In this document: piece after piece, positions 363-39,623 of the stretch
Layout: each line of letters opens with the position of its first letter
Numbering within the stretch: position 1 is the first letter of the stretch
Virus record (IMG/VR): IMGVR_UViG_3300018080_000060
Location: 1-40,972 of that record
Origin: a virus
DNA length: 40,972 nucleotides
Direction: 5' to 3' (one strand)
Notes under the pieces: generated by a model
The model's input: only the letters and a program-made list of their open reading frames with translations
Databases searched by the model: none
What the model was told of the DNA's origin: nothing
Position numbers and translations under genes: made by a program

Positions 363-710
363 TTATTCGTAGGTGTCAAAGACAGCAGTTATAGGGAGAA
401 TGTCAAGTTTGTCACCTACAGTGCCAATGGCATACCAGTCTTTCAGGTCGGTGACGTTACCGCCATCAAGCCTTATAAATGGAAGGCTAAAACCCTGGCC
501 AGGCTCTATGTTTAAGCCATTGCCAGCGGTAACAGTGGAATCACCAATCGTTATATTCGCTGCGTTTGTGCTTGCCGCCTTCACTTGCACCATGTCTGAT
601 TTTGCTTTTGAGAATGATGTTCCCAACTTGGTATTGTAGAGCGCCAGTAATGTAGTAGCTGACGCCAAAATATCAACAGTTGCTGCGGTTTTTGGTTTTG
701 CGTCTCCCAT
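363..710 (-). CDS. Small virion-associated protein, hypothetical
   Basis: A 115-residue protein of unknown function with AAGGAG ahead of the ATG. The sequence is rich in Ala, Thr, Asn and Asp, has no Cys, and ends in a beta-type stretch around LNIEPGQGFSLPF that resembles small capsid or tail decoration domains in general character. It lies between the fibre genes and the internal virion genes in the late block, so a structural role is likely. I do not recognise a named family. Confidence 0.75.
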   Translation of the reverse strand: MGDAKPKTAATVDILASATTLLALYNTKLGTSFSKAKSDMVQVKAASTNAANITIGDSTVTAGNGLNIEPGQGFSLPFIRLDGGNVTDLKDWYAIGTVGDKLDILPITAVFDTYE

Positions 711-720
711 GTGTTTCTCC

Positions 721-1143
721 TTAAAGTCCTAGCCCAAACACTTCCCCGATAAATGTTTCTTCACTTCCAAGCCTGTTCTTAAACGTGTATGTTCCGTCTC
801 CGTCAGCAATCATACACATCCTGCCATCTGTATCAGATGTTGCACATTTTGGCGGCGTCTGAGTATCACTGATAAGTTTCACAGTATTCGCGTCACCCTG
901 GATATGCCACATGCAAGCGCCTTGAGATGTATCCCCATCTGATACCACAGTGACTACAGCGACGCCGTTTGCGCTCCATAGTATCATGTCAACTGTTCCA
1001 TCATCTGCAACAATCTCCTTGCCGTATGACTTCATTACTCCAACGCCTTCAGTGCCGACACGGATTCCTCCTCCAGCCACCTGAATGGCGTAGCAACAGA
1101 CTATGGCAAGTAAAAACAATAGAAATGTATTTAAGTTTTTCAT
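721..1143 (-). CDS. Signal-peptide-bearing fibre-region protein
   Basis: A 140-residue protein starting at the ATG 1141-1143, one base after the stop of the upstream fibre gene; an upstream in-frame ATG at 1227 lies inside that gene and is rejected. Residues 1-25 form a signal peptide-like segment (short basic start, then LLFLLAIVCC). The double Cys does not fit a standard lipobox. The last 80 residues resemble the C-terminal domain of the 852-residue fibre next door: both have AC...HI.G..NT, spaced cysteines, then a G.Y...N.LG pattern. It may be a duplicated fibre-tip domain released as a separate, possibly exported, protein. The function is unknown. Confidence 0.75.
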   Translation of the reverse strand: MKNLNTFLLFLLAIVCCYAIQVAGGGIRVGTEGVGVMKSYGKEIVADDGTVDMILWSANGVAVVTVVSDGDTSQGACMWHIQGDANTVKLISDTQTPPKCATSDTDGRMCMIADGDGTYTFKNRLGSEETFIGEVFGLGL

Positions 1144-1144
1144 G

Positions 1145-3703
1145 TCAATTCCCCAGGATCTCAATTGAGAATGTAACAGTGGCACCGAGATTGTTTTCCA
1201 TCTCATACTTGCCAATGTCTCCGTCATAATAAAGATTGAATGATGATGCCGTAGTTGAAGTCACTGAACAACTATCTGCGGAATCATATATTTCAACAGA
1301 AGTGTTTCCAGTCCCCCGGATATGGAACGAACAACATGCGGGCTGTCCATTTGAATTGGCAACGATATCAACTCGCGCTATTTGGTTGGTAAGCCAGTCA
1401 CCAAGCGCCTTCACGTCAGTTGCGGCCCCAGAGTCGGTAAGTTGTTGAATAAAAAACCGCTTCGCAACAACCGTGTTTGCGTGGATCTCCATACCGTCAG
1501 TGCTGTTGTTGTATTTGATAATACCGGCATCGTCGTCGTCGGTATCACCAAGAAGAACGCTTGCTGTATTCGATGTGCCTGACACTACTGATACATTTGC
1601 GTCACCTGATGAATTTTCAATGTCAAGCAACCTATTTGGCTCAGTTGTCCCAATACCAGCCTTGCCGGATGAGTCGAGAACTATATTGCCGCCAACTGTA
1701 ATATTTCCGGTTGCGTCAAGTGTCGCAGTATTTACATTGGTTGTCGTTACCGTTGCAAACCCGGATATCACTTCTGTTCCAGACAACCCTGATACGTTGC
1801 CGCCAACGTTCACATTGCCGGTAAGAGCAGTCGTTCCAGTTAATGTTTTGTCTCCATTAATCGTAGCAGTTTCTTCAGACATCACAAAATTAGATGCGCC
1901 TGATTGTGACGGTATTGTTAATGTCGCTGTTGATCCACCTGTGCCATATATCAACCGAGCCCAATTACCTCCTCCTTGAGCCTGTATCTCAAAAAGAGCG
2001 CCGTCTTGAATGTCAAGAGCAGCAACACCACCTGCTTCGTCAAGTGTATATGTTCCTGATAATGTTTGTGTACCTTCTGATATAATCACATTTCCAGATG
2101 TGCCTGTCCCTGTTGGCAATGTCCATGTATATGATCCACCGGCAGAACTTGATTTAAGCAATAATGTGCCGCCACCTGGATTGTAAAACTCAACACCGCT
2201 TGTCGTAGAAACAGTAACCTTTTCAGCAAAAGTTGTGTATCCAGTAAACTCCTGGCTTGCATTCAATAACGCAACATTGGCTGAAAGCGCACCGTCTGGA
2301 ATACCAGTGAAATTCGTACCATCAAGTACCGGGCTTGATCCACTGCTCGTATCCTGGTCAATGGTAGCGTTGCCTTCAATGGCCAGTGATCTATCTCCAT
2401 CATTGACAGTAATGTTCAGAGTTTTGTCTCCGGTCAAATCCTCATTAAGTGTGACGGTAAGCTCATGGTCTTTACCAGTGTCAACCAGATCAACGCTCGT
2501 GGTTACAACTGTATCAACACCGGATATCACGCTTGTGCCGGCAGTTCCTGTTATGTTGCCCACTATGATCTGATTACCGCTAACCGCTAAAGCTGACGTG
2601 TTAACCGTAGTGGTTGTCACAGTCGCAAAGTTCGAGATGGTCTCGGTCCCAGCAGTACCAGATATGTCGCCAGATACAGTGGTGTTGCCATCAACATCAA
2701 CGTTCCCAGAGGCATTCAAAGCCCCGGTGTTTACAGTGGTGGTGGTCACTGTAGCAAAGTTACTTATCGTTTCAGTGCCTGCCGTACCAGATATGTTCCC
2801 GGACACAGTTGTGTTACCGTCTATGTCAACATTCCCGGTTGCGTTTAACGCTTCGGTGTTTACGGTGGTAGTGGTTACCGTGGCAAAGTTGGATATTGTC
2901 TCTGTTCCTGCCGTACCGGAAATGTTTCCTGACACAGCGGTGTTGCCATCTATATCCACATTACCAGTTGCGTTTAATGCTCCAGTATTTACAGTGGTAG
3001 TAGTTACTGTGGCAAAATTGCTTATCGTCTCTGTTCCCGCCGTACCGGAAATATTACCGGACACAGATATTCCACCGTCTTTAAGTAGCACACTGTCAAC
3101 GGTAACCCCAGTTCCAGCGGTTTGCTCTGCAATTGAGTTTGTTTTGGGTGCAACATTAAAAGTCTTTACTCCATAAATAATTTGCGCTCCAACATCCATT
3201 ATGAAATCAGCATCACTTGATACATTGGGCAAAAAGAAGTTTTTATCTGCTGTTATATCGTGACCCTTTATCCCAAATGTATTACTATTGTCAGAATCAA
3301 ATATTCTTAAATATGTGTCCTCAAATGTTATTGTCGTATGTACAGTTTGTGCTGCTCCAGTTGTCATTAAAAACGACGCGTTTGCTCCAGCATCAGGGAC
3401 GGTGTATACCAAGTCAGTGGCTGGGTTGGCAGCGTTAATGGTTATGTCGCCGTTTATCGTGTGATTGAATATCAGGCCGTTGGTTCCTGGCACCGTGACT
3501 GGTGTTGAGTAGGTAGTGATGGGCGACAATAGGCTTGAATCAATTTTTCCATCGGATGCTTTAATCAAGACTGGAAGACTGGTACCTGCACCTGGTGACA
3601 CTGATTGAAACGTCGAGCGGGGATAAGAAGAAGCGGGGGTGAGTTGTGCATCAACCGCCGCCGTTAAAGTAAGCGCGATTACTAAAAACAAAAAAGTTCT
3701 CAT
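1145..3703 (-). CDS. Large repetitive tail fibre protein with signal peptide
   Basis: An 852-residue fibre-like protein with AAGGAG before the ATG. Residues 1-19 form a textbook signal peptide (MRTFLFLVIALTLTAAVDA, cleavage before Gln20), which is unusual for a tail fibre. Residues 215-383 hold four near-identical 43-residue beta-rich repeats (core SGNISGTAGTETISNF), with degenerate copies later. A KAGIGTTEP motif followed by LDI, near residue 690, is typical of the shaft-to-tip region of phage and bacterial fibres. The C-terminal 80 residues are Cys-containing and shared with the 721-1143 protein. The likely role is host-surface binding as a trimeric fibre. The alternative is an exported surface protein carried by the phage. 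Confidence 0.85.
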   Translation of the reverse strand: MRTFLFLVIALTLTAAVDAQLTPASSYPRSTFQSVSPGAGTSLPVLIKASDGKIDSSLLSPITTYSTPVTVPGTNGLIFNHTINGDITINAANPATDLVYTVPDAGANASFLMTTGAAQTVHTTITFEDTYLRIFDSDNSNTFGIKGHDITADKNFFLPNVSSDADFIMDVGAQIIYGVKTFNVAPKTNSIAEQTAGTGVTVDSVLLKDGGISVSGNISGTAGTETISNFATVTTTTVNTGALNATGNVDIDGNTAVSGNISGTAGTETISNFATVTTTTVNTEALNATGNVDIDGNTTVSGNISGTAGTETISNFATVTTTTVNTGALNASGNVDVDGNTTVSGDISGTAGTETISNFATVTTTTVNTSALAVSGNQIIVGNITGTAGTSVISGVDTVVTTSVDLVDTGKDHELTVTLNEDLTGDKTLNITVNDGDRSLAIEGNATIDQDTSSGSSPVLDGTNFTGIPDGALSANVALLNASQEFTGYTTFAEKVTVSTTSGVEFYNPGGGTLLLKSSSAGGSYTWTLPTGTGTSGNVIISEGTQTLSGTYTLDEAGGVAALDIQDGALFEIQAQGGGNWARLIYGTGGSTATLTIPSQSGASNFVMSEETATINGDKTLTGTTALTGNVNVGGNVSGLSGTEVISGFATVTTTNVNTATLDATGNITVGGNIVLDSSGKAGIGTTEPNRLLDIENSSGDANVSVVSGTSNTASVLLGDTDDDDAGIIKYNNSTDGMEIHANTVVAKRFFIQQLTDSGAATDVKALGDWLTNQIARVDIVANSNGQPACCSFHIRGTGNTSVEIYDSADSCSVTSTTASSFNLYYDGDIGKYEMENNLGATVTFSIEILGN
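2555..3061 (-). repeat. Four tandem 129-bp coding repeats in the fibre gene
   Basis: The units encode 43 residues each at residues 215-257, 258-300, 301-343 and 344 to about 383. Protein identity is much higher than DNA identity: many third positions differ, so the repeat is old and kept by selection or exchange. The last unit decays at its C-terminal end. Confidence 0.85.
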
Positions 3704-3715
3704 GTCCGATTCTCC

Positions 3716-4687
3716 TTATAACGAAACGTCGTCGTCATACTCAGTTATGTTGGCTCTTAGGCTCACGTCTGTATTGGATGTGATGTAGTGGAAGTTGATG
3801 CCTGCCTCACCAGGATCAATTGGCAGTATCTTGGATACAGTCTCTCTGAAGTAGACATTTCCGCCAGCATCAGTTGCGCTCTCGATCTGAAGGAATCTAT
3901 TAGTGGCGCTCGCCGTCTGGCCATGGAGCGCGATGTTTACGGACCCGCTCTTGCTGACGCCGGTTGCATAACATGCAAGCTCTACAGTAAACGCCTTTGC
4001 GGTGGCTGGAACGATACCGCTGCAATCTACGGTAGTATCAACTGCGCCTGTTGCGTCGTTGACCTCGAAAGGTGAGGCAAAGTGGTTGACTCCGGTAAAT
4101 GTGGTTCGCCTGACAAATCCTATCGCCTGCTGGATGAACTTGTATCTGTTTGCTGATCCGTCTGTCCTGATGCTGCCTAGCCTTCTGGCCTTGTCATAGC
4201 CCGGAGAACCACCCAGCGTAGTATTCAGATTGGATGCAACTGTTGCCGCGACAGTCGATGTGCTCAACACAAAAGTTACTGAAGTGTTGGCGATCACCCG
4301 TCCGACAGCTGCTCTAGATTTGCCGACTGCCCAGACATGATAAAACGTGTCATTTGCGGCTGCGCCAGTATCAAGACCTAGTTCGCCAGCGCCACTAAAA
4401 TCAATGGTACCAGCAGTATTCTCCAGTATGTAGTTTCCGGTGGAGTCCCACGCTACACCAAGTGCGACCTCTATCTCCTGGCCGTTGGCATTATATGAAA
4501 CCTCATAACCCTTGATAGAATCATTGATGTTGTCCAAAGCTGTTATCGCGTTGCTGGCCGCGTTAAGATCTGTCTGGACGTTGGTGAAGTTAGTGTTTAT
4601 TTTTGCGATCTTCGCGTTCCATGAAGGATAGTCGTTCGCAACATCGTCATCTACCCAGTCGTTAATTGTTTGCGGTGTAAACGCCAT
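3716..4687 (-). CDS. Tail fibre / tail-spike anchor protein, putative
   Basis: A 323-residue protein with no Cys-rich or enzymatic motif. Residues 1-55 look alpha-helical (NDWVDDDVANDYPSWNAKI... then NTNFTNVQTDLNAAS), which suits an N-terminal attachment or trimerising helix. The rest is Ser/Thr/Asn/Gly-rich beta sequence. The ATG overlaps the TAA of the upstream 101-residue gene by one base, and the fibre gene follows 12 bases downstream. A structural, tail-attached fibre role is inferred from position and composition. Confidence 0.7.
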   Translation of the reverse strand: MAFTPQTINDWVDDDVANDYPSWNAKIAKINTNFTNVQTDLNAASNAITALDNINDSIKGYEVSYNANGQEIEVALGVAWDSTGNYILENTAGTIDFSGAGELGLDTGAAANDTFYHVWAVGKSRAAVGRVIANTSVTFVLSTSTVAATVASNLNTTLGGSPGYDKARRLGSIRTDGSANRYKFIQQAIGFVRRTTFTGVNHFASPFEVNDATGAVDTTVDCSGIVPATAKAFTVELACYATGVSKSGSVNIALHGQTASATNRFLQIESATDAGGNVYFRETVSKILPIDPGEAGINFHYITSNTDVSLRANITEYDDDVSL

Positions 4688-17693: not shown

Positions 17694-17876
17694 ATGAACT
17701 CACCATATGGGATGAGCATGAAAGATGACTATTCAGACTGCTATAGTGAGCCGTGGTGGCTATGGTACTTTTGTGGAACATGCCACACGACTAAAGACCT
17801 GGTTGAGTACCAGCCAGACTGCTACATATGCCCCAAGTGCAAAGCAAAATACGACGCCGAGTACACAAAGCAATAA
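17694..17876 (+). CDS. Zinc-ribbon microprotein (60 aa)
   Basis: A 60-residue protein. Its second half holds a zinc ribbon: CGTC near residue 27, then CYICPKC about 15 residues later. The first half is acidic and aromatic (DDYSDCYSEPWWLWYF). It probably binds protein or nucleic acid through the ribbon. Read from cassette A copy 2. Confidence 0.75.
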   Translation: MNSPYGMSMKDDYSDCYSEPWWLWYFCGTCHTTKDLVEYQPDCYICPKCKAKYDAEYTKQ

Positions 17877-17881
17877 CCCAG

Positions 17882-17901
17882 CTAACCAAACAGGAGAAAA
17901 T
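17882..17901 (+). repeat. Junction cassette A, copy 3
   Basis: One base differs from copies 1 and 2 (GAGAAAAT for GAGAGAAT). It supplies the ribosome site for the gene at 17906. Confidence 0.9.
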
Positions 17902-17905
17902 GACC

Positions 17906-18364
17906 ATGAAAAGAACAATCGAAATTGATGATGATTTACAAGAAAGAATTGACGATGCTTGCGAAGAACTTAAAATTGAGGTAATCGAATACCTTAAAAA
18001 ATCAGGGCCTTTCACAGACGAAGATGAGTTATATCAAGAATTTAGTGACCGAATAACGGAGCTTGCTGATTCTTACGTTCCTATCTACTATTATGAACTC
18101 CGAAATTTGTGGTACTTGCACAGCGACCTTTTAACAGAAGCATACGAATCGGTCGGGATAGGCAGTGATCCATTTGAAAAAGACGGTGCGGTTGCTATTT
18201 ATTGCCATATTGACCAAGAGGTGCGCTGGTGGCTTGCGGAGAATGCAGACCAGTTAATTGCCGAACACTGCCCACAAGAATGCGAAGACTGTGGCCTGGA
18301 GAATGCCAGCCATTACAATTCAGTAACTCACCTACATGTTTGCGATGACTGCATATCAGCCTAA
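17906..18364 (+). CDS. Hypothetical protein with C-terminal zinc ribbon (152 aa)
   Basis: A 152-residue acidic protein. The N-terminus (MKRTIEIDDDLQERIDDACE) resembles the strand-helix start of small antitoxin-like DNA-binding folds, but the rest does not. The C-terminus has two Cys pairs (CEDC and CDDC, with His between), a likely zinc ribbon. The start is the second ATG after cassette A, as in its neighbours. The function is unknown. Confidence 0.75.
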   Translation: MKRTIEIDDDLQERIDDACEELKIEVIEYLKKSGPFTDEDELYQEFSDRITELADSYVPIYYYELRNLWYLHSDLLTEAYESVGIGSDPFEKDGAVAIYCHIDQEVRWWLAENADQLIAEHCPQECEDCGLENASHYNSVTHLHVCDDCISA

Positions 18365-18375
18365 TCGCAGAGCGG

Positions 18376-18392
18376 AGCCCTTCGGGGCTTTA
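18376..18392 (+). terminator. UUCG-loop hairpin terminator, candidate
   Basis: AGCCC-TTCG-GGGCT followed by TT and an AT-rich run, 12 bases after the stop at 18364. The C(UUCG)G loop is unusually stable. The T-run is short, so termination may be partial. A second stem (GCGGG 18395-18399 with CCCGC 18416-18420) follows. Confidence 0.55.
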
Positions 18393-18441
18393 ATGCGGGT
18401 AAGAGCGGTCGCAACCCCGCCGAACCAGGTCAGCTGCACAG

Positions 18442-26078: not shown

Positions 26079-26200
26079 TGATAGGGATAGTGGGAGAAGA
26101 GATGAAGCTAGATATACCAGTCCTTTACGGCTTCGTCGGCGACGAGCTGGTATGGACAGAGGCGGAAAATAACCAAGTGTTAGGAACAGGTGGACGATGA
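26069..26200 (+). CDS. Small hypothetical protein (43 aa)
   Basis: A 43-residue protein (MLIMIGIVGEEMKLDIPVLY at its start) with a strong AGGAGG eight bases before the ATG. The hydrophobic beginning is short for a membrane segment. Its stop overlaps the ATG of the next gene (ATGA). The function is unknown. Confidence 0.65.
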   Translation: MLIMIGIVGEEMKLDIPVLYGFVGDELVWTEAENNQVLGTGGR

Positions 26201-26829
26201 GCAGTAAACCAATACAAGCATGGCATTTCGTGAAGGACAACAGAGCAATCCTGCATCTCCACCATGGCAAGGAGGTGAAGATCAGGAAGGGCCTGGTTTT
26301 AACCTGCGACCCAGACAGACTTGAGATGCTTAGATACGGTCTTCATGCGTCGGAAAACATAATTGATGCGTTATGTCATGCCCCAGGAAGCGTTATTTGT
26401 CGCGTAGAGTGTTCCGGCTCTTGGGTTAAAAGCGATGACAAGCTGGTTTGCAGTGAGCGTAGAGTACTGTGGTGGATTAACGTAGAACACATTTTGCATG
26501 AGTTTGCTTGCCGATGCGCTGAACGGGCTATTAATAGAGTCAAATTGAACGACCCGGTGTTTGCAGATGCCATCAAAGCAAAAAGGAAGTGGCTAAAGAA
26601 GCAGATAAGTGATGATGAGCTGGCCGCTGCTGGGGCCACTGCTTGGGAAGCTGCTAGGGTCGCTGCTTGGGAAGCTGCTAGGGAAACTGCTAGGGAAGCT
26701 GCTTGGGCCGCTGCTGGGGCCGCTGCTTGGGACGCTGAGAGAAAATGGCAATCCCGCTGTTTAACGCAGATGGTGTACGCTGAAAACGTTTTGAAAGACT
26801 TGGAGGTGGCCACCAATGGCGAAGGATAA
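26197..26829 (+). CDS. DUF7666-like protein with Ala-rich pseudo-repeats
   Basis: A 210-residue protein. Residues 7-92 fit the DUF7666 type found in phages: AWHFV, a G-x-V-x2-G region, YGLHAS (47-52), DALCHAPGS, then DDKLVCSERRVLWW. Residues 143-180 are alanine-rich with repeated AAWEAAR / AAAWAAA-like units, forming a long helix. Proteins with this head and tail are common in phage and bacterial accessory regions; their role is unknown, and some may be toxin-like or interaction domains. The ATG overlaps the previous stop. Confidence 0.75.
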   Translation: MSSKPIQAWHFVKDNRAILHLHHGKEVKIRKGLVLTCDPDRLEMLRYGLHASENIIDALCHAPGSVICRVECSGSWVKSDDKLVCSERRVLWWINVEHILHEFACRCAERAINRVKLNDPVFADAIKAKRKWLKKQISDDELAAAGATAWEAARVAAWEAARETAREAAWAAAGAAAWDAERKWQSRCLTQMVYAENVLKDLEVATNGEG

Positions 26830-28536: not shown

Positions 28537-28782
28537 GTGAAAGAGATAACTTGTGATATATGCGGAAGAAGATTAGACGACAGAGCCGCCAGTGGCGATA
28601 ATTTCATGGTGCTTGAAATATTTTTGCCCAGTGAATCATGGGGATATAACAGCACCTGCAACGGGAACGACGATATATGCACAGCCTGTATGGAAGCCTT
28701 GGTCTTTACGCTTCAGCGACTGTCTGATCGGACATTTGATGATCTTGTCGAAGGGGGCGGGGATGAAAACTATAACAAGTGA
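28537..28782 (+). CDS. Cys-pair protein with GTG start (81 aa)
   Basis: An 81-residue protein starting at GTG 28537 after a GGAGGGGGC stretch related to cassette B. CDICGRRL at the N-terminus and CTACMEAL near residue 50 give two Cys pairs, a probable zinc site, followed by a helix. It ends VEGGGDENYNK through cassette B copy 2. No family recognised. Confidence 0.7.
   Translation: MKEITCDICGRRLDDRAASGDNFMVLEIFLPSESWGYNSTCNGNDDICTACMEALVFTLQRLSDRTFDDLVEGGGDENYNK
28747..28766 (+). repeat. Junction cassette B, copy 2
   Basis: Identical to 28368-28387 over 20 bases; contains the ATG of the pentapeptide-repeat gene. Confidence 0.9.
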
Positions 28783-29314
28783 CGAGCTGAAATTAATTCT
28801 TGAAAAACATGAAAAATGGCTTAAGGGTGAGGCCGAGGGAGAACGGGCAATCCTGATAGGATATGATGTCAGGGGCAGTGATCTTAGGAACAGTGATCTC
28901 AGGGGCAGCGTTCTCTGGGGCAGCGATTTCAGACACAGTGATCTCAGTGGCAGTGATCTCAGGGGCAGTAATCTCAGATACAGTGATCTCAGGGGCAGTG
29001 ATCTTAGGAACAGTGATCTCAGGGGCAGCGTTCTCTGGGGCAGCGATTTCAGACACAGTGATCTCAGTGGCAGTGATCTCAGGGGCATCGATCTTGATTT
29101 TTATTCATGGCCATTATGGTGTGGAACGCGCAACGTCAAAGTGGATGAGAATATCGTTTATCAATTATTGCTGCACATCAACTGGTTAGACAATGATTGT
29201 AAGGTTTTGCAGGACATTCGGGCATTACCTTCATTTCAGCGGGCGATAAAGAAGGCAGCAAAGAAGCGAGATGTAAGTCATGAAAGAACCGAAGGGGGCG
29301 GGGATGCAGATTGA
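28763..29314 (+). CDS. Pentapeptide-repeat protein (183 aa)
   Basis: A 183-residue protein. Residues 35-112 are about 15 pentapeptides of the A(D/N)Lxx type (GSDLR, NSDLR, GSVLW, GSDFR, HSDLS), which form a right-handed quadrilateral beta helix; in some proteins this mimics DNA. An N-terminal helical cap (LILEKHEKWLKGEAEGE) precedes it, and a helical C-terminal domain follows with WCGTRNVKVDENIVYQLLLH. It starts within cassette B copy 2 and ends EGGGDAD by copy 3. A role such as protecting or inhibiting a DNA enzyme is a guess. Confidence 0.8.
   Translation: MKTITSDELKLILEKHEKWLKGEAEGERAILIGYDVRGSDLRNSDLRGSVLWGSDFRHSDLSGSDLRGSNLRYSDLRGSDLRNSDLRGSVLWGSDFRHSDLSGSDLRGIDLDFYSWPLWCGTRNVKVDENIVYQLLLHINWLDNDCKVLQDIRALPSFQRAIKKAAKKRDVSHERTEGGGDAD
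28869..29087 (+). repeat. 99-bp exact repeat pair with 120-bp period
   Basis: 28869-28967 is identical to 28989-29087, inside the pentapeptide gene. It gives two copies of 33 codons separated by 7 codons. Exact identity at synonymous sites shows a recent duplication. Confidence 0.9.
29290..29306 (+). repeat. Junction cassette B, copy 3
   Basis: CGAAGGGGGCGGGGATG, 17 bases identical to copies 1 and 2, ending with the start codon of the next gene. Confidence 0.85.
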
Positions 29315-32873: not shown

Positions 32874-33031
32874 CTGGGTAGCTTAGTTGGTAGAGCGTAT
32901 GATGTGAGCTATACATGGGAGATGTACATTACCTTGTGGCAGGCGAGCAGTGGAAAGACTGCCTGTAGACGACCGGCCAGAGTCCCGATTTGTTAAGCCC
33001 GGACATGTGGACTGAGACCTGCTAGCTCATA
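32874..33031 (+). ncRNA. Structured RNA-like element, tRNA-like 5' part
   Basis: Between the convergent ends of two blocks. TAGCTTAGTTGGTAGAGC (32879-32896) is very close to a tRNA D-arm. It is followed by stems TACAT/ATGTA (32912-32926), CAGG/CCTG plus CAGT/ACTG (32940-32965) and AGTCC/GGACT (32981-33013). A 9-bp helix joins 32903-32911 to 33023-33031. No T-arm or matching acceptor strand is visible, so it is not a normal tRNA. It could be a degenerate tRNA, an RNA gene or a convergence element. Confidence 0.35.
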
Positions 33032-33443
33032 TCTTCAGAATCAAAGCCTTGATCACACCATAAAGCATGTACTTCTCCATGCCCCGCTCGATACCTTTGC
33101 TGATGTACCCACGCTGAACAGCCTTTTTTAACTCTCTCTCAAGTCGCTTCTGAGATTCCAGCATTTCAAGCAGCATCTCTTTCTTCTCGGCTATCTCCTT
33201 GTCCCTGGCCTCCAGCTTCAGCTTCAATTCCACTACCAGCTTATCTTGGGCATCAAGTGCGGCCTGGAGCTTGTCTTTATCCGTCTTATACTTTACCGCC
33301 AGGCTCTTAGCTGTCTTCAGTTGATCCGGCAGACTCCTGCTCTCTGCGCCAACCATCCACAATGGCGTCGTCATCAGTATCAGTAACAAGGCCAGTGCGA
33401 TAGTGCTTGATCTTGGCTTCGTATTCAGCGATTTTTTCGTCAT
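33027..33443 (-). CDS. Coiled-coil lysis-region protein with signal sequence
   Basis: A 138-residue protein. I start at ATG 33441-33443, with GAGGAG about ten bases upstream; an ATG seven codons earlier (33464) is also possible. A hydrophobic signal or anchor (ALALLLILMTTPLWMVGA) is followed by a long coiled coil (LVVELKLKLEARDKEIAEKKEML) and a basic, hydrophobic C-terminus. It overlaps the spanin-like gene in another frame. It may be a second spanin component, but it lacks the lipobox Cys of an outer-membrane spanin. Confidence 0.6.
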   Translation of the reverse strand: MTKKSLNTKPRSSTIALALLLILMTTPLWMVGAESRSLPDQLKTAKSLAVKYKTDKDKLQAALDAQDKLVVELKLKLEARDKEIAEKKEMLLEMLESQKRLERELKKAVQRGYISKGIERGMEKYMLYGVIKALILKI

Positions 33444-33612
33444 GGATTCGATGCTCCTCTGCATGCAGGTCTTCCTGGTCCTTCAGCTTCTTCTCCAGCC
33501 CCTGCCGCCTGGCACGCTCCTCACGGTACAGGTTTGGTGTGCTCCTGTTCTTATACCAGATGGCAGCCAGGGCAGAGAACACGCCCAGAACGAATATGAT
33601 GAAGTTATTCAT
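33307..33612 (-). CDS. Inner-membrane spanin-like protein (Rz-like)
   Basis: A 101-residue protein. An N-terminal membrane segment (residues 3-20: NFIIFVLGVFSALAAIWYKN) precedes a charged coiled coil (EERARRQGLEKKLKDQEDL) and a C-terminus with DDDAIVDGWRRE. Such spanins link the inner and outer membranes at lysis of Gram-negative hosts. The ATG overlaps the end of the holin-like gene by 8 bases with no Shine-Dalgarno, so translation is probably coupled. The 3' part overlaps the next gene by 137 bases. Confidence 0.7.
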   Translation of the reverse strand: MNNFIIFVLGVFSALAAIWYKNRSTPNLYREERARRQGLEKKLKDQEDLHAEEHRIHDEKIAEYEAKIKHYRTGLVTDTDDDAIVDGWRREQESAGSTEDS

Positions 33613-33796
33613 TGGGAGGGAGCTTCTTCTGGGCACCGTTCTTGGTGATAGCCATCATGTCGGTTCCACCATGGACACCAATTACGCCGCCGACAATAAC
33701 AAGCCAGGTGCTCTGGATAGATATGTCAGCGTTCAGGTAAATCAGCGCCAGCAGGAACAGGCCGCCAGCTATCATATACATCATCTTCTGGGTCAT
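33605..33796 (-). CDS. Holin-like protein (63 aa)
   Basis: A 63-residue protein with two hydrophobic segments (about residues 5-21 and 28-45: MYMIAGGLFLLALIYL and TWLVIVGGVIGVHGG) and a short charged tail (KNGAQKKLPPNE), the layout of a class II holin. Holins open the inner membrane to time lysis. It lies between the endolysin and spanin genes. The 34323-34553 gene is an alternative holin candidate. Confidence 0.6.
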   Translation of the reverse strand: MTQKMMYMIAGGLFLLALIYLNADISIQSTWLVIVGGVIGVHGGTDMMAITKNGAQKKLPPNE

Positions 33797-34951: not shown

Positions 34952-37821
34952 TAGAATCCTCTCCTCCTTTGAGCCGCCTGCCGTTGCATCTCTTCACGAT
35001 ATCCGGTTCTCTTCTCGCCTAACGCGTCCCTTAACCGCTCTATGTACATCCGGTTATCTTCAAGGTACTCTTCCTTCTCTGGATCCATTATATCCCGGTT
35101 CTTATATCGGATGTCGCGCCTAATCTTCTCAATATCCTTCAGAATCTTGTATGCTTCCCTGCGCCGATTCTGGTCAAGATCAACCTGGTAGGTTCGCGCT
35201 ATAACAAATTGTAAGATTTTATTGATTGGTGACAAGTCGTTAGGCACGCCGGCTGTCAACGTACCGCGCATCAGTTTGTTTAATGAGCCCAAGAGTGGCA
35301 CTATACCCCTTGCAAAGTGCGCTGTGGTCTTAGGTACCATGAGCCCCATCAACGGCTCTACGTCGGCTGAATGGCGCATTAGCGGCTGTTCTTTGTATTT
35401 CGAGTAGTTGCTGATGGCTTCGGTGATCGCGTTGTATGCCGGGAGTGATGATTCAAGGCCGAACTGGAGCAGCGGTGAGCCTGGGAACCTGGATTCTTCT
35501 CCGGTCACTGTTTTCTTGGCCGCTGTCAAGAACCTCAGGGCTGTTGAAGGGGCGAGGAACCGTTCCATACCCATCATCTCTAGCCGCTTCTTGTCGCCAT
35601 ACTCTTGCTGGAACGGCGTGAATATAGGCATTTGCTCTCGATAGTATTCCGGGATATCCTTGGTTTCCAGTCCTGGGTATGCCGCCTGCTGGAGTGCGCC
35701 CCTGGCCTTGAAGATCCGGTTGAATGTCTGCGGGTGTTCCAGCATAGCTTGGAGGTATACCGGTACCGATTTTCTAACCCACGCATACCATGGCAAGATT
35801 CTTTTAAATAGCTCGCGTTCTGCATTTGTAAGGTCTGAATAGTCCACGTGCCACTTGCTTACGTCCAGGGCTGCTTTCTCTGCCGCTTCGCTCCAGCTCT
35901 TGTTTGCTCTTGGAAGCGACTTGTAATGCTTCATAGCGTTATTGATGAACAGGCTTGTCCTGAGCGTATCTTCAGTAAACTGGCCAGCTTTGGCAGATGC
36001 CTGCAAATACATAGATTTTGTCGGTGATATTGGGGTAACCCTGGCAGCTACTTCCCAGGCTGCTTTTGCTTTGCCCTTTGCTCCTTTTCCCGCAAAGACA
36101 TTCTTCACTTCTTTAGCTAGCCCCTTCACCATGTTCTTACTGTATTTGTTGTTCTGCGCCATCTCTATGACATCGCCCATCAATGATCTGTCAGCAGAAA
36201 GCACGCCATGATCGCGGGCCATAAACAGCCAGTCCAGCATGTTCCGGCCTTCAACGTTGCCCATCTTCTTGATCTGGGAGAATTTGCCCTGGCGGTACAG
36301 GTTCGCGGCCTTGGCTATTTTGGAATAGAACATCGCTGTCTTAGGCTTCAGAAGGTTTATACCGTTAAGGTGGTTCACCAACAGCCCTGACATTCCGTTT
36401 GCTACATGAAACGCTGGTCTGGCCAGTGCAGACGCTTTCCAGTACTTTGAGAAGTCATCCCAGATTTTGAATGCCGCACCCAGGTCTTTCTTTGATTTGA
36501 CAGCGTCGATCATTCTTTCTGCGTCATCGACGAAATTGCTGTCGAAGTATTTACCTTTTAACAGCTTTGATACTCGCGAGTTTTTCATCCGCTTGGGCAG
36601 TACGAACTCTCTCATGCCCTTGCCGCGTTTGGTGCTGTAGAGTCCGTCGTTTACAAGGCCGGTAAGGAAATCGTTGGCTGCAAACTGCTGGGATACTTCG
36701 CCGCCTTTCTTTTGGAAGATATCAACGATATCGTTTACATACTTTACACGGCCAAATCCATCGTGTAACGAGTCTGCGTTCAGTTCTGACAGCTTCCTGA
36801 TATCTTTTCTTCTGAACGCTCCGGCACCAGCTTTATCAGTAGTCCCTACAGCAGCGCCTCTGGATATCCCGTGATTGAATCCCTGGTAGTGTTCGTCGTA
36901 TTTTGTCGGGTTTCTAAACAGTCTCATCACTGAGGACATTATTGATTCTTCTTCTGCCGGAACAACAATATGCGGCATGTACGACATCTTGTCTTTGAAT
37001 CTGACATCTTCAGGGTTCAATATCCCGCGCTTGTTCATGCCCTTTTCGATCATTTCTTCTATGTCGCTTTGGATTGCGCGGCCCCACTTAACAACGTCGT
37101 CAGGCGTTCCTGCTGGGATATCGTCAAACCGTTCAGCAACTGTCTTTCCAATATTTATGTTTTCGGACATGGCTGTTGCAGCGTTACGTAGCTCCGTGTC
37201 CGGTATCAAGTTCTCGTACTCCGCAGCCTTCTCCATGAACTCAGTAGCATGTTTTGATTCTGCTGTCCTCATCTGACGCAATCGGCGGTAATACTCGCCA
37301 GAATGTTCCATAGGGCCTGCGGCACCGATACCCATCTTGGTAAGGTATTGAGGCGTGAATGTAGTGCCAATTGCCTGCCCCACTCTTGTCTTTGGTAGGT
37401 TGGCAGCCACGTTAGCAGCTATATCTGCAGCTCCTGTTGCTCTTGCGACGGCACCCACGCCCCTACCTGCAAGTTGTAACCCCTTCTTTGCCAGCCCGAA
37501 CCCAGGAACGTCGGCAGCCATTTCTATCCCAAGGCCAGCCAGCGCTCTTTTAATGGCTTCCGGTGACCATCCTTCTTCTGGCTTCAGTGGTTCCTCGTCC
37601 ATCGCCAGCTCGTATATTTTCTGCCCAGGATACTTTCGGCCTTCTCCCATGGCTGCGGAATAAAGCCCACGCCCAGCAGCACCAAGGTAATCAAATGGGT
37701 TTAATTGCTTGCCTTCTTTCGACGCTTCCATCCCTTCAATTATTGGTGCGCGAATAGTCCTGCCAGGGACATCGAGGATGTCCGCAAGCATTTCCCATGC
37801 TGTTCTTGTGGGTTCTGCCAT
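34951..37821 (-). CDS. Large internal virion protein (LPD38-like, 956 aa)
   Basis: A 956-residue virion protein. The N-terminal 200 residues are Gly/Ala-rich with short amphipathic helices (AGLGIEMAADVPGFGLAKKG), suited to membrane insertion. The middle and C-terminal parts are long helices. KYWKASALARPAFHVANG with a later YAWVRKSVPVYLQAMLEHP resembles the LPD38 domain of large polyvalent proteins and podovirus ejection proteins. It is probably ejected with the DNA to form a channel through the cell envelope. Confidence 0.75.
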   Translation of the reverse strand: MAEPTRTAWEMLADILDVPGRTIRAPIIEGMEASKEGKQLNPFDYLGAAGRGLYSAAMGEGRKYPGQKIYELAMDEEPLKPEEGWSPEAIKRALAGLGIEMAADVPGFGLAKKGLQLAGRGVGAVARATGAADIAANVAANLPKTRVGQAIGTTFTPQYLTKMGIGAAGPMEHSGEYYRRLRQMRTAESKHATEFMEKAAEYENLIPDTELRNAATAMSENINIGKTVAERFDDIPAGTPDDVVKWGRAIQSDIEEMIEKGMNKRGILNPEDVRFKDKMSYMPHIVVPAEEESIMSSVMRLFRNPTKYDEHYQGFNHGISRGAAVGTTDKAGAGAFRRKDIRKLSELNADSLHDGFGRVKYVNDIVDIFQKKGGEVSQQFAANDFLTGLVNDGLYSTKRGKGMREFVLPKRMKNSRVSKLLKGKYFDSNFVDDAERMIDAVKSKKDLGAAFKIWDDFSKYWKASALARPAFHVANGMSGLLVNHLNGINLLKPKTAMFYSKIAKAANLYRQGKFSQIKKMGNVEGRNMLDWLFMARDHGVLSADRSLMGDVIEMAQNNKYSKNMVKGLAKEVKNVFAGKGAKGKAKAAWEVAARVTPISPTKSMYLQASAKAGQFTEDTLRTSLFINNAMKHYKSLPRANKSWSEAAEKAALDVSKWHVDYSDLTNAERELFKRILPWYAWVRKSVPVYLQAMLEHPQTFNRIFKARGALQQAAYPGLETKDIPEYYREQMPIFTPFQQEYGDKKRLEMMGMERFLAPSTALRFLTAAKKTVTGEESRFPGSPLLQFGLESSLPAYNAITEAISNYSKYKEQPLMRHSADVEPLMGLMVPKTTAHFARGIVPLLGSLNKLMRGTLTAGVPNDLSPINKILQFVIARTYQVDLDQNRRREAYKILKDIEKIRRDIRYKNRDIMDPEKEEYLEDNRMYIERLRDALGEKRTGYREEMQRQAAQRRRGF

Positions 37822-39623
37822 TATTTATTTGCCTCTATAAATGCCAGCGCATCCGCCAGTGTAGCATTACCGTTCCGTATGGCTCGCTTCATTTCGTTTC
37901 CGCCTGGCACTGAATTGAAGATATCAAGTGCGCCAGGGATCTCCAGGATAATGTCGTATGCCTTGAAACCAGTCTCATTAAGATTGTCCTGGATTCTCCT
38001 GATAATCTTCTGGCCGGTTTTTCCTCGGCGGCCTACCATCGCATCAAATGGCGATGTTTTATTTTTTCCTGTAATTGATGCTAGTGGCGCTGTTATTAAC
38101 TTGGATAACGCTTCTGTCGGTTTTCCAATCCACTTTTTTGCTGGGATAGTCTCAGGCGCATATTCTTTTGGGTCTGGTACCAACTTGTTGTATCTTGCCA
38201 AGGCACTGTCTATTGGCTCCTCTATGTCTCGCAATGCCCGCGTTGGCAGATAATCATATGCTTCTTGAACAGTCATTTCTGGAAGACCAAGCTCTGGCGC
38301 TGCCTGTAGAGTTGGCTTCAATATAACCTCTTCGAATCCTTTCTTTAATCCTCTGCCAATTGCCGGATAAAACTTTTTCGCCGCTTCTGTTGCGACTGCT
38401 GCTGGAGCATATTGCGGGATTTGTGAGACAAAGTTGAAATAATCTTCAAGCAGATTGGTTTTATCCTGTGGCTCTGCCTGCATTACCTCGTTTAGCTTTT
38501 GCCATTTCCTGACAAAATCTTCTTTGGTCTTTATTTTGTCTCTGTTGCGCTTTTTCCAGGCAATTTCTGGATCTATCTTTGAGCTGATTGCTGGAGTTTG
38601 CATTTTCAGGTCTTCAAATGCACCGGTGGCTATTTCATCCATGCCAGTCCCGGACGCGTCAATTGTTGGCATTTCCATCTCTATGCCATAGCGCTTTGCT
38701 AAAACTGAGCGATTCCTGATGATGCCGCTTATATCTCTATTGGCTTGGCGCAGCGCAATCTGATACGACCTGTTGTATATGTCTGCTTTTTCCTTATCTG
38801 TCATTGGAAAGGCGTTTTCTTTTGCAAGTCTTTTCGATTCAAGCTCGTCAACTCGCATCTGGGCCCTGTATTCTGCAAGCCTCTTGATCATATCATCAGG
38901 CGTTCCGCCTTCTTCGTAAGCTATATACGCATCATTTCCATACTTCCTGGATAGTATGTTTTCAACAGCCTCGCGTTTCTTCAGTGTTCTCTCAAAGTCT
39001 TTGTATGTGTATTCTTTTCGTTTTAAGCGCTTTTGTTCTTCTATCCATGCCTCTTGTTTTTCATAGGCATCTTTAATGGCGTCCCATTGCGCTTTAGGCA
39101 TAAGTTGGCCAGTACCTTTATGGCGCACATAGCCCATAGCTTCCTTTTCTTTTTCGGCATCATAAGCTGCCCTAGCAAGCCGCTTTGTTTCCATGCTTTT
39201 TTTGCGCTGTTCCGTAGCCTCAGTGATAGGCATTCCTGTTTCAGTGAAGCCAATTCTTTGGCCGGTCAATTCAGCGGGAACAGGAGGCGGCTGTATTGGC
39301 TGTGGAGGCATTGCGGGCATAATCCCAGGCGGCATTCCTGCCATACCAGTAAGAGCTTGTACGTTTTGAGCCATCCCTGGTATGGCTGTTTGTACCTTCT
39401 CCCCTACTTCATCCCACCGCTGGCCAAGCCTGGCTCCTCTGGCAAGCTCTTGGATTGCTTCCTGGTCTTTTCGCTCCCGAATCTTTTTGGCGCGGTATGC
39501 AGGATCTGTTTCCATGCGTCTGGTGTGACGCCTGTACTCTCTGTCTTCCTTTTCTTCTCGTGCCTCTTTTGCGCCGCCAGCAGCCCCTAGTACAAGAGCA
39601 AGCAATTCTTTCATTTTTGCCAT
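37821..39623 (-). CDS. Internal virion protein, putative (600 aa)
   Basis: A 600-residue protein. The N-terminal 60 residues are highly charged (KEDREYRRHTRRMETD), followed by a Pro/Met/Gly/Gln linker near residues 75-120 (MPPGIMPAMPPQPIQPPP) and mostly helical, coiled-coil-like sequence rich in Lys, Glu and Ala. It lies between two other large virion genes and overlaps the next gene by one base, the order of podovirus ejection-protein genes. Assignment by position and composition. Confidence 0.65.
   Translation of the reverse strand: MAKMKELLALVLGAAGGAKEAREEKEDREYRRHTRRMETDPAYRAKKIRERKDQEAIQELARGARLGQRWDEVGEKVQTAIPGMAQNVQALTGMAGMPPGIMPAMPPQPIQPPPVPAELTGQRIGFTETGMPITEATEQRKKSMETKRLARAAYDAEKEKEAMGYVRHKGTGQLMPKAQWDAIKDAYEKQEAWIEEQKRLKRKEYTYKDFERTLKKREAVENILSRKYGNDAYIAYEEGGTPDDMIKRLAEYRAQMRVDELESKRLAKENAFPMTDKEKADIYNRSYQIALRQANRDISGIIRNRSVLAKRYGIEMEMPTIDASGTGMDEIATGAFEDLKMQTPAISSKIDPEIAWKKRNRDKIKTKEDFVRKWQKLNEVMQAEPQDKTNLLEDYFNFVSQIPQYAPAAVATEAAKKFYPAIGRGLKKGFEEVILKPTLQAAPELGLPEMTVQEAYDYLPTRALRDIEEPIDSALARYNKLVPDPKEYAPETIPAKKWIGKPTEALSKLITAPLASITGKNKTSPFDAMVGRRGKTGQKIIRRIQDNLNETGFKAYDIILEIPGALDIFNSVPGGNEMKRAIRNGNATLADALAFIEANK

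What the first reader, a model, noticed from the sequence alone, without database searches (positions are those of the whole stretch)
1145..3703. A tail fibre with a classical signal peptide
Virion fibres normally stay in the cytoplasm until assembly, yet this 852-residue fibre-like protein begins with a clean secretory signal (AVDA before Gln20). It could be an exported decoy, a protein fixed on the infected cell surface, or a fibre gene that captured an export signal from a host surface protein.
Basis: partly seen in the sequence, partly recalled or inferred. Interest (0 to 1): 0.65.

Follow-up and report, generated by a model that had tools for sequence, protein, structure and literature searches.

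The report
Secreted phage fibre with signal peptide
An uncultivated phage carries a tail-fibre-like protein that begins with a classic secretion signal, next to a small second gene that shares the same end domain and also starts with a signal, and a first survey finds the same fusion in unrelated phages, suggesting that some phages send fibre-type proteins out of the cell they infect, perhaps to block rivals.

Summary
The 852-aa ORF at 1145-3703 lies on the minus strand and starts behind a good ribosome site with a textbook signal peptide (MRTFLFLVIALTLTAAVDA|Q). Its body matches virion fibres of cultured phages. New here: the next gene (721-1143) also starts with a signal-like segment and repeats the fibre's last ~100 residues, so this is a two-gene exported cassette. 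It follows a signal-less fibre-like gene (3716-4687). The phage (circular, ~40.8 kb, podovirus-like, Rz-like lysis genes) has no close relatives, and ~130 distant capsid relatives show no such gene. Two motif samples of viral contigs nevertheless gave fibre-like ORFs with signal peptides in unrelated phages: 10/208 versus 12/1163 other large ORFs (p=6e-4), 0/103 after shuffling. Several lie inside virion operons, carry ordinary fibre parts (fibre tip, endosialidase chaperone, phage fibre N-terminal domain) or are paired with a second exported gene. Best reading: a fibre gene that gained an export signal; the product acts outside the cytoplasm, most likely occupying receptors (superinfection exclusion or adsorption control). 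Export is well supported; function is inferred. An uncleaved virion anchor is not excluded.

The parts
1145..3703 (-). Fibre-like protein with signal peptide, 852 aa
   Evidence: fibre matches; GC3 0.38 against 0.50-0.67 for most other structural genes
3647..3703 (-). Predicted Sec signal peptide, residues 1-19, cleavage VDA|Q20
3712..3717 (-). Ribosome-binding site AAGGAG, overlapping the TAA stop of the upstream fibre-like gene
   Evidence: sequence
2598..3066 (-). 129-bp tandem repeats (3.6 copies) encoding the repeated shaft
1148..1471 (-). C-terminal ~108-aa domain holding the only Cys residues of the protein (790, 791, 812)
721..1143 (-). Second, small exported protein (140 aa): signal-like N-terminus plus the same C-terminal domain
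   Evidence: similarity to fibre residues 769-851, E=1.2e-7, 36%; signal-like start
1087..1143 (-). Predicted signal peptide of the small protein (MKNLNTFLLFLLAIVCCYA|IQ)
   Evidence: one search's cleavage matrix scored it weakly (0.04)
3716..4687 (-). Signal-less fibre-like gene directly upstream, same reading frame, 323 aa; candidate virion fibre
   Evidence: 35% over 133 aa to the Bradyrhizobium phage ppBjS10J-1 fibre-region protein, pairwise E=6e-11; phrog_17105
363..710 (-). 115-aa ORF downstream without signal, similarly low GC3 (0.42); possible end of the exchanged segment

Best explanation
A phage fibre gene that gained a Sec signal peptide. The protein is made with the virion operon, exported by the host Sec machinery and cut after Ala19 together with a small partner that shares its C-terminal domain, and acts in the periplasm or on the cell surface. 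The most likely role is occupying or masking phage receptors on the infected cell and its debris (superinfection exclusion or adsorption control), while a separate signal-less protein (3716-4687) serves the virion. Shown: the signal-like N-termini, the shared domain, the fibre modules, the operon position and the recurrence of such fusions in unrelated phages. Inferred: export, cleavage and location. Hypothesis only: receptor masking.
For: Signal peptide of canonical form and a clean start site. The second adjacent gene also has a signal-like start and a homologous C-terminal domain. Both have lower GC3 than most neighbours, as an exchanged cassette would. Fibre-like ORFs with such signals recur and are enriched: 10/208 versus 12/1163, Fisher p=6e-4, with 0/102 and 0/103 in shuffles. 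Their contexts are phage virion operons: portal, terminase and head genes in L358, tape measure in L402, baseplate wedge in L317, tape measure in L291. They carry ordinary phage parts: L317 tip homologous to a signal-less Bradyrhizobium phage fibre (E=1e-15), L349 with Peptidase_S74, L358 mature N-terminus aligning with the very N-terminus of a signal-less protein, L402 with a tail-fibre family. In L317 the partner gene, with a DUF4376 domain, has a signal too. Precedent: T5 Llp, an exported exclusion protein encoded next to the receptor-binding protein (PMC9586334).
Against: No SignalP run and no experiment. The exported C-terminal domain is not shared with the candidate virion fibre 3716-4687, so masking of the same receptor is unsupported. 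No relatives, so conservation of the signal could not be tested. Crossing the outer membrane is unexplained. Signal-bearing neighbours are only weakly commoner beside signal-bearing fibres (3/10 versus 18/198, p=0.07). Cysteine content does not separate exported from ordinary fibres.
Confidence: 0.5

Rival explanations
1. It is a virion fibre after all: the hydrophobic N-terminus is not cleaved but anchors the fibre to the tail, or the fibre is exported, folds outside the cytoplasm and joins particles at lysis.
For: Position right after tail genes; in L402 and L358 the signal-bearing fibre is the only fibre seen near the structural genes, though those loci are partial.
Against: The 14-residue core followed by VDA|Q is signal-like rather than a coiled docking helix; a separate signal-less fibre-like gene exists in the window; matching cultured fibres have no such N-terminus; in L317 a signal-bearing pair sits between the baseplate wedge and further signal-less structural-looking genes.
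Confidence: 0.25
2. It is a surface adhesin that changes the host cell (lysogenic or pseudolysogenic conversion), like phage-encoded PblB.
For: PblB of a pneumococcal prophage is a tail-type protein with a predicted signal peptide that mediates adhesion (PMC4508584).
Against: No integrase was recognised among the genes examined (not searched exhaustively); placement in the late virion operon suggests expression shortly before lysis.
Confidence: 0.12
3. It is a captured host surface protein and not a phage fibre.
For: Lower GC3; secreted proteins with GIGTT motifs exist in bacteria (general knowledge).
Against: Best sequence matches are phage fibres; no relative among ~85,000 species genomes with the patterns used; comparable signal-bearing fibres carry typical phage modules.
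Confidence: 0.08
4. The hydrophobic N-terminus is a chance feature with no role.
For: About 1% of other large ORFs in viral contigs pass the same rule.
Against: Two adjacent homologous genes both have it; enrichment among fibre-like ORFs.
Confidence: 0.05

Closest known systems
Bacteriophage T5 Llp and Cor lipoproteins (superinfection exclusion)
   Same: Small exported phage protein encoded next to the receptor-binding protein gene; blocks the receptor (PMC9586334)
   Different: Llp is a small lipoprotein without fibre modules; here one of the two proteins is an 852-aa fibre, and no lipobox is evident in the small one
PblA/PblB of streptococcal prophages
   Same: Phage tail-type protein displayed on the bacterial surface; a signal peptide was predicted for PblB of strain NTUH-P15 (PMC4508584)
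   Different: Gram-positive prophage; PblB carries a prophage endopeptidase tail domain, not seen here
Lambda Lom and Bor (exported proteins encoded by a tailed phage; from own knowledge)
   Same: Secretory signals on phage accessory proteins
   Different: Not fibre-derived
Ordinary phage tail fibres (S-CBP4, CRP-823, Bradyrhizobium phage ppBjS10J-1)
   Same: Shared repeat and tip modules
   Different: N-termini without signal peptide

Membership tests
Sec/SPase I-exported protein | positively charged n-region, hydrophobic core of about 8-15 residues, AxA-like cleavage site | tested here: met
   rule-based, not SignalP
Sec/SPase I-exported protein | cleavage and export in vivo | not testable with these tools
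   needs fusion assay or proteomics
Phage tail fibre | sequence modules shared with virion fibres | tested here: met
   (residues 663-763), repeats; no PHROGs or Pfam family hit
Phage tail fibre | presence in virion, tail-docking N-terminus | tested here: inconclusive
   structure prediction failed, pLDDT 34
Superinfection-exclusion protein (Llp type) | lipobox and small size | tested here: not met
   852 aa; small partner has AIVC at its first Cys, not a lipobox (sequence)
Superinfection-exclusion protein (Llp type) | blocks phage receptor | not testable with these tools
   needs adsorption or superinfection assay
Captured host surface protein | closest relatives are cellular | tested here: not met
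   none found in genome contigs; phage matches instead

The most novel reading that the evidence does not exclude
A recurrent, apparently undescribed strategy: tailed phages add Sec signals to full fibre genes, often with a second exported gene nearby, and insert these cassettes in the virion operon to place receptor-binding fibres outside the cell before lysis.
Probability: 0.4. Interest if true: 0.8.

Novelty: new variant of a known kind. Interest (0 to 1): 0.58.

Why it matters
Fibres are expected to stay in the cytoplasm until assembly. If several percent of fibre-like genes in environmental phages are exported, calling a gene 'tail fibre' from its modules alone will misassign host-range determinants, and exported fibres would be a large new pool of candidate exclusion or surface-modifying proteins, testable with simple signal-fusion and adsorption assays.

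Tried and rejected
No relatives of the fibre or the small protein in viral or genome contigs; terminase and capsid single-sequence scans empty. The capsid alignment gave 160 relatives, none with a similar fibre; the large signal-like hits there were judged host transporters or host genes from their N-termini and position. Both structure predictions failed (pLDDT 35 and 34), so no fold search was run. The S-RIP/KBS-P-1A match to the C-terminal domain (E=5) was judged chance: it overlaps the start of an unrelated small ORF. Cysteine content as evidence of export was not discriminating. PDB sequence matches were weak and unrelated. Paper searches found no report of signal-bearing tail fibres as a class; the library lacks most subscription journals, so this is not proof of absence. 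My first cleavage matrix, trained on 22 E. coli signals, was too narrow and was replaced by a rule.

Full report
What is there. The window is a complete virus record with a 123-bp terminal direct repeat, i.e. a circular genome of about 40.85 kb. Capsid, terminase, SU10-type adaptor and primase genes mark it as a tailed phage. Its capsid protein is distantly related (24-32%) to podovirus-like phages and to prophages mostly of Alphaproteobacteria and other proteobacteria. The lysis region has a glucosaminidase, a weak Rz-like spanin match and small membrane-anchored ORFs, which fits a host with an outer membrane; the host itself is not known.

The observation. The finding lies on the minus strand. 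The ORF 3703..1145 has an ATG behind TAAGGAG, whose TAA is the stop of the upstream gene, so translation is probably coupled. The first 19 residues form a canonical signal peptide. A rule (positive n-region, uncharged core of 8-16 residues with mean hydropathy of at least 2.2, small residues at -3 and -1) was applied throughout. By it only six ORFs of the window pass: this one, the next one, and four in the lysis region. Shuffles of the first 40 residues reach both its hydrophobicity and its cleavage score in 0.05% of cases; the cleavage score alone is unremarkable.

The annotated-looking ORF 721-1227 really starts at 1143, just after the fibre's stop: 140 aa with a signal-like start (MKNLNTFLLFLLAIVCCYA|IQ), whose C-terminal part repeats that of the fibre (E=1.2e-7, 36%). 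All Cys residues of the fibre (790, 791, 812) lie in this shared domain, and one Cys column is invariant between the two. Both genes have GC3 0.38, against 0.50-0.67 for most structural genes; one other virion gene, 37821-39623, is also low at 0.40. Directly upstream, 3716-4687 encodes a signal-less fibre-like protein that shares a region with a fibre-region protein of Bradyrhizobium phage ppBjS10J-1; it is a candidate virion fibre, though alone it found no match in cultured phages.

Is it a fibre? Residues 663-763 match fibres of S-CBP4, S-PRM1 and CRP-823; the N-termini of the S-CBP4 and CRP-823 fibres lack signals. Tandem 129-bp repeats build the shaft. No Pfam or PHROGs model is hit, and structure prediction failed for lack of relatives, so the fold is not established.

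Is it conserved or recurrent? No close relative exists in the collections scanned. In 133 capsid-related loci none of 970 downstream same-strand genes is a comparable signal-bearing fibre. The trait is therefore not ancestral to that capsid group as sampled. But two motif samples of viral contigs gave signal-bearing fibre-like ORFs: 4 of 102 and 10 of 103 (one locus, L282, is in both), with none in shuffled N-termini. With a stricter score and non-overlapping ORFs the figures are 10 of 208 fibre-like against 12 of 1163 other ORFs of at least 250 aa (Fisher p=6e-4).

Are those cases real phage genes? L358 has terminase, portal and major head protein upstream of it; L317 a baseplate wedge immediately upstream; L402 a tape measure upstream and a tail-fibre family in its C-terminus; L291 tape measure and tail proteins. 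Their parts are ordinary: the L317 tip is homologous to the signal-less Bradyrhizobium phage protein (E=1e-15); L349 carries the endosialidase chaperone domain and has the same VDA|Q sequence after its core; the mature L358 N-terminus (residues 2-95) aligns with residues 3-96 of a signal-less protein, as if a signal had been put in front of a complete fibre. A second exported gene lies nearby in several: L317 (with DUF4376), L289, L296, L227 and L291, although the formal test is weak (3/10 versus 18/198, p=0.07), partly because many loci are fragments. Some contigs may be cellular or archaeal (L251, L223).

How it may work. Signals on both proteins of a pair are best explained by selection for export. 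Since the body is a fibre, the natural role is binding surface molecules from outside or from the periplasm: masking receptors against superinfection or against loss of progeny on debris, as T5 does with the exported Llp encoded next to its receptor-binding protein (PMC9586334, read). This step is inference. The exported tip is not shared with the candidate virion fibre, and passage through the outer membrane is unexplained. A virion role of the N-terminus, or a surface adhesin as proposed for PblB (PMC4508584, read), remain possible.

Verdict. Observation confirmed (strand corrected); interpretation partly supported; a new variant of a known kind (exported phage proteins, tail fibres), interesting mainly because of its recurrence.

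Noticed in passing
window 18366-18420 (+): Twister-P5 ribozyme (RF02684, 53.3 bits against a gathering score of 37.6) in a low-GC stretch just after ORF 17828-18364.
   Followed up: no
window 28592-29314 (+): Pentapeptide-repeat protein (PF00805, E=2.5e-22), with 15-bp tandem repeats at 28864-29087.
   Followed up: no
window 26197-26829 (+): DUF7666 protein with a 12/36-bp tandem repeat giving an Ala-rich tail.
   Followed up: no
window 3716-4687 and 1145-3703 (-): The signal-less and the signal-bearing fibre-like genes are in the same reading frame, separated by one TAA and four codons; read-through would fuse them.
   Followed up: no
window 33027-33464 and 33310-33654 (-): Overlapping membrane-anchored ORFs that look like an Rz/Rz1-type spanin pair.
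   Followed up: partly
L093:3684-4241, L099:7424-7864: Small signal-bearing protein of a shared family inserted close behind the capsid gene in rumen Alphaproteobacteria prophages; a similar ORF lies at L099:424-822 (-).
   Followed up: partly
L317:2339-2923 (-): DUF4376 protein with its own signal peptide, directly behind a signal-bearing fibre.
   Followed up: partly
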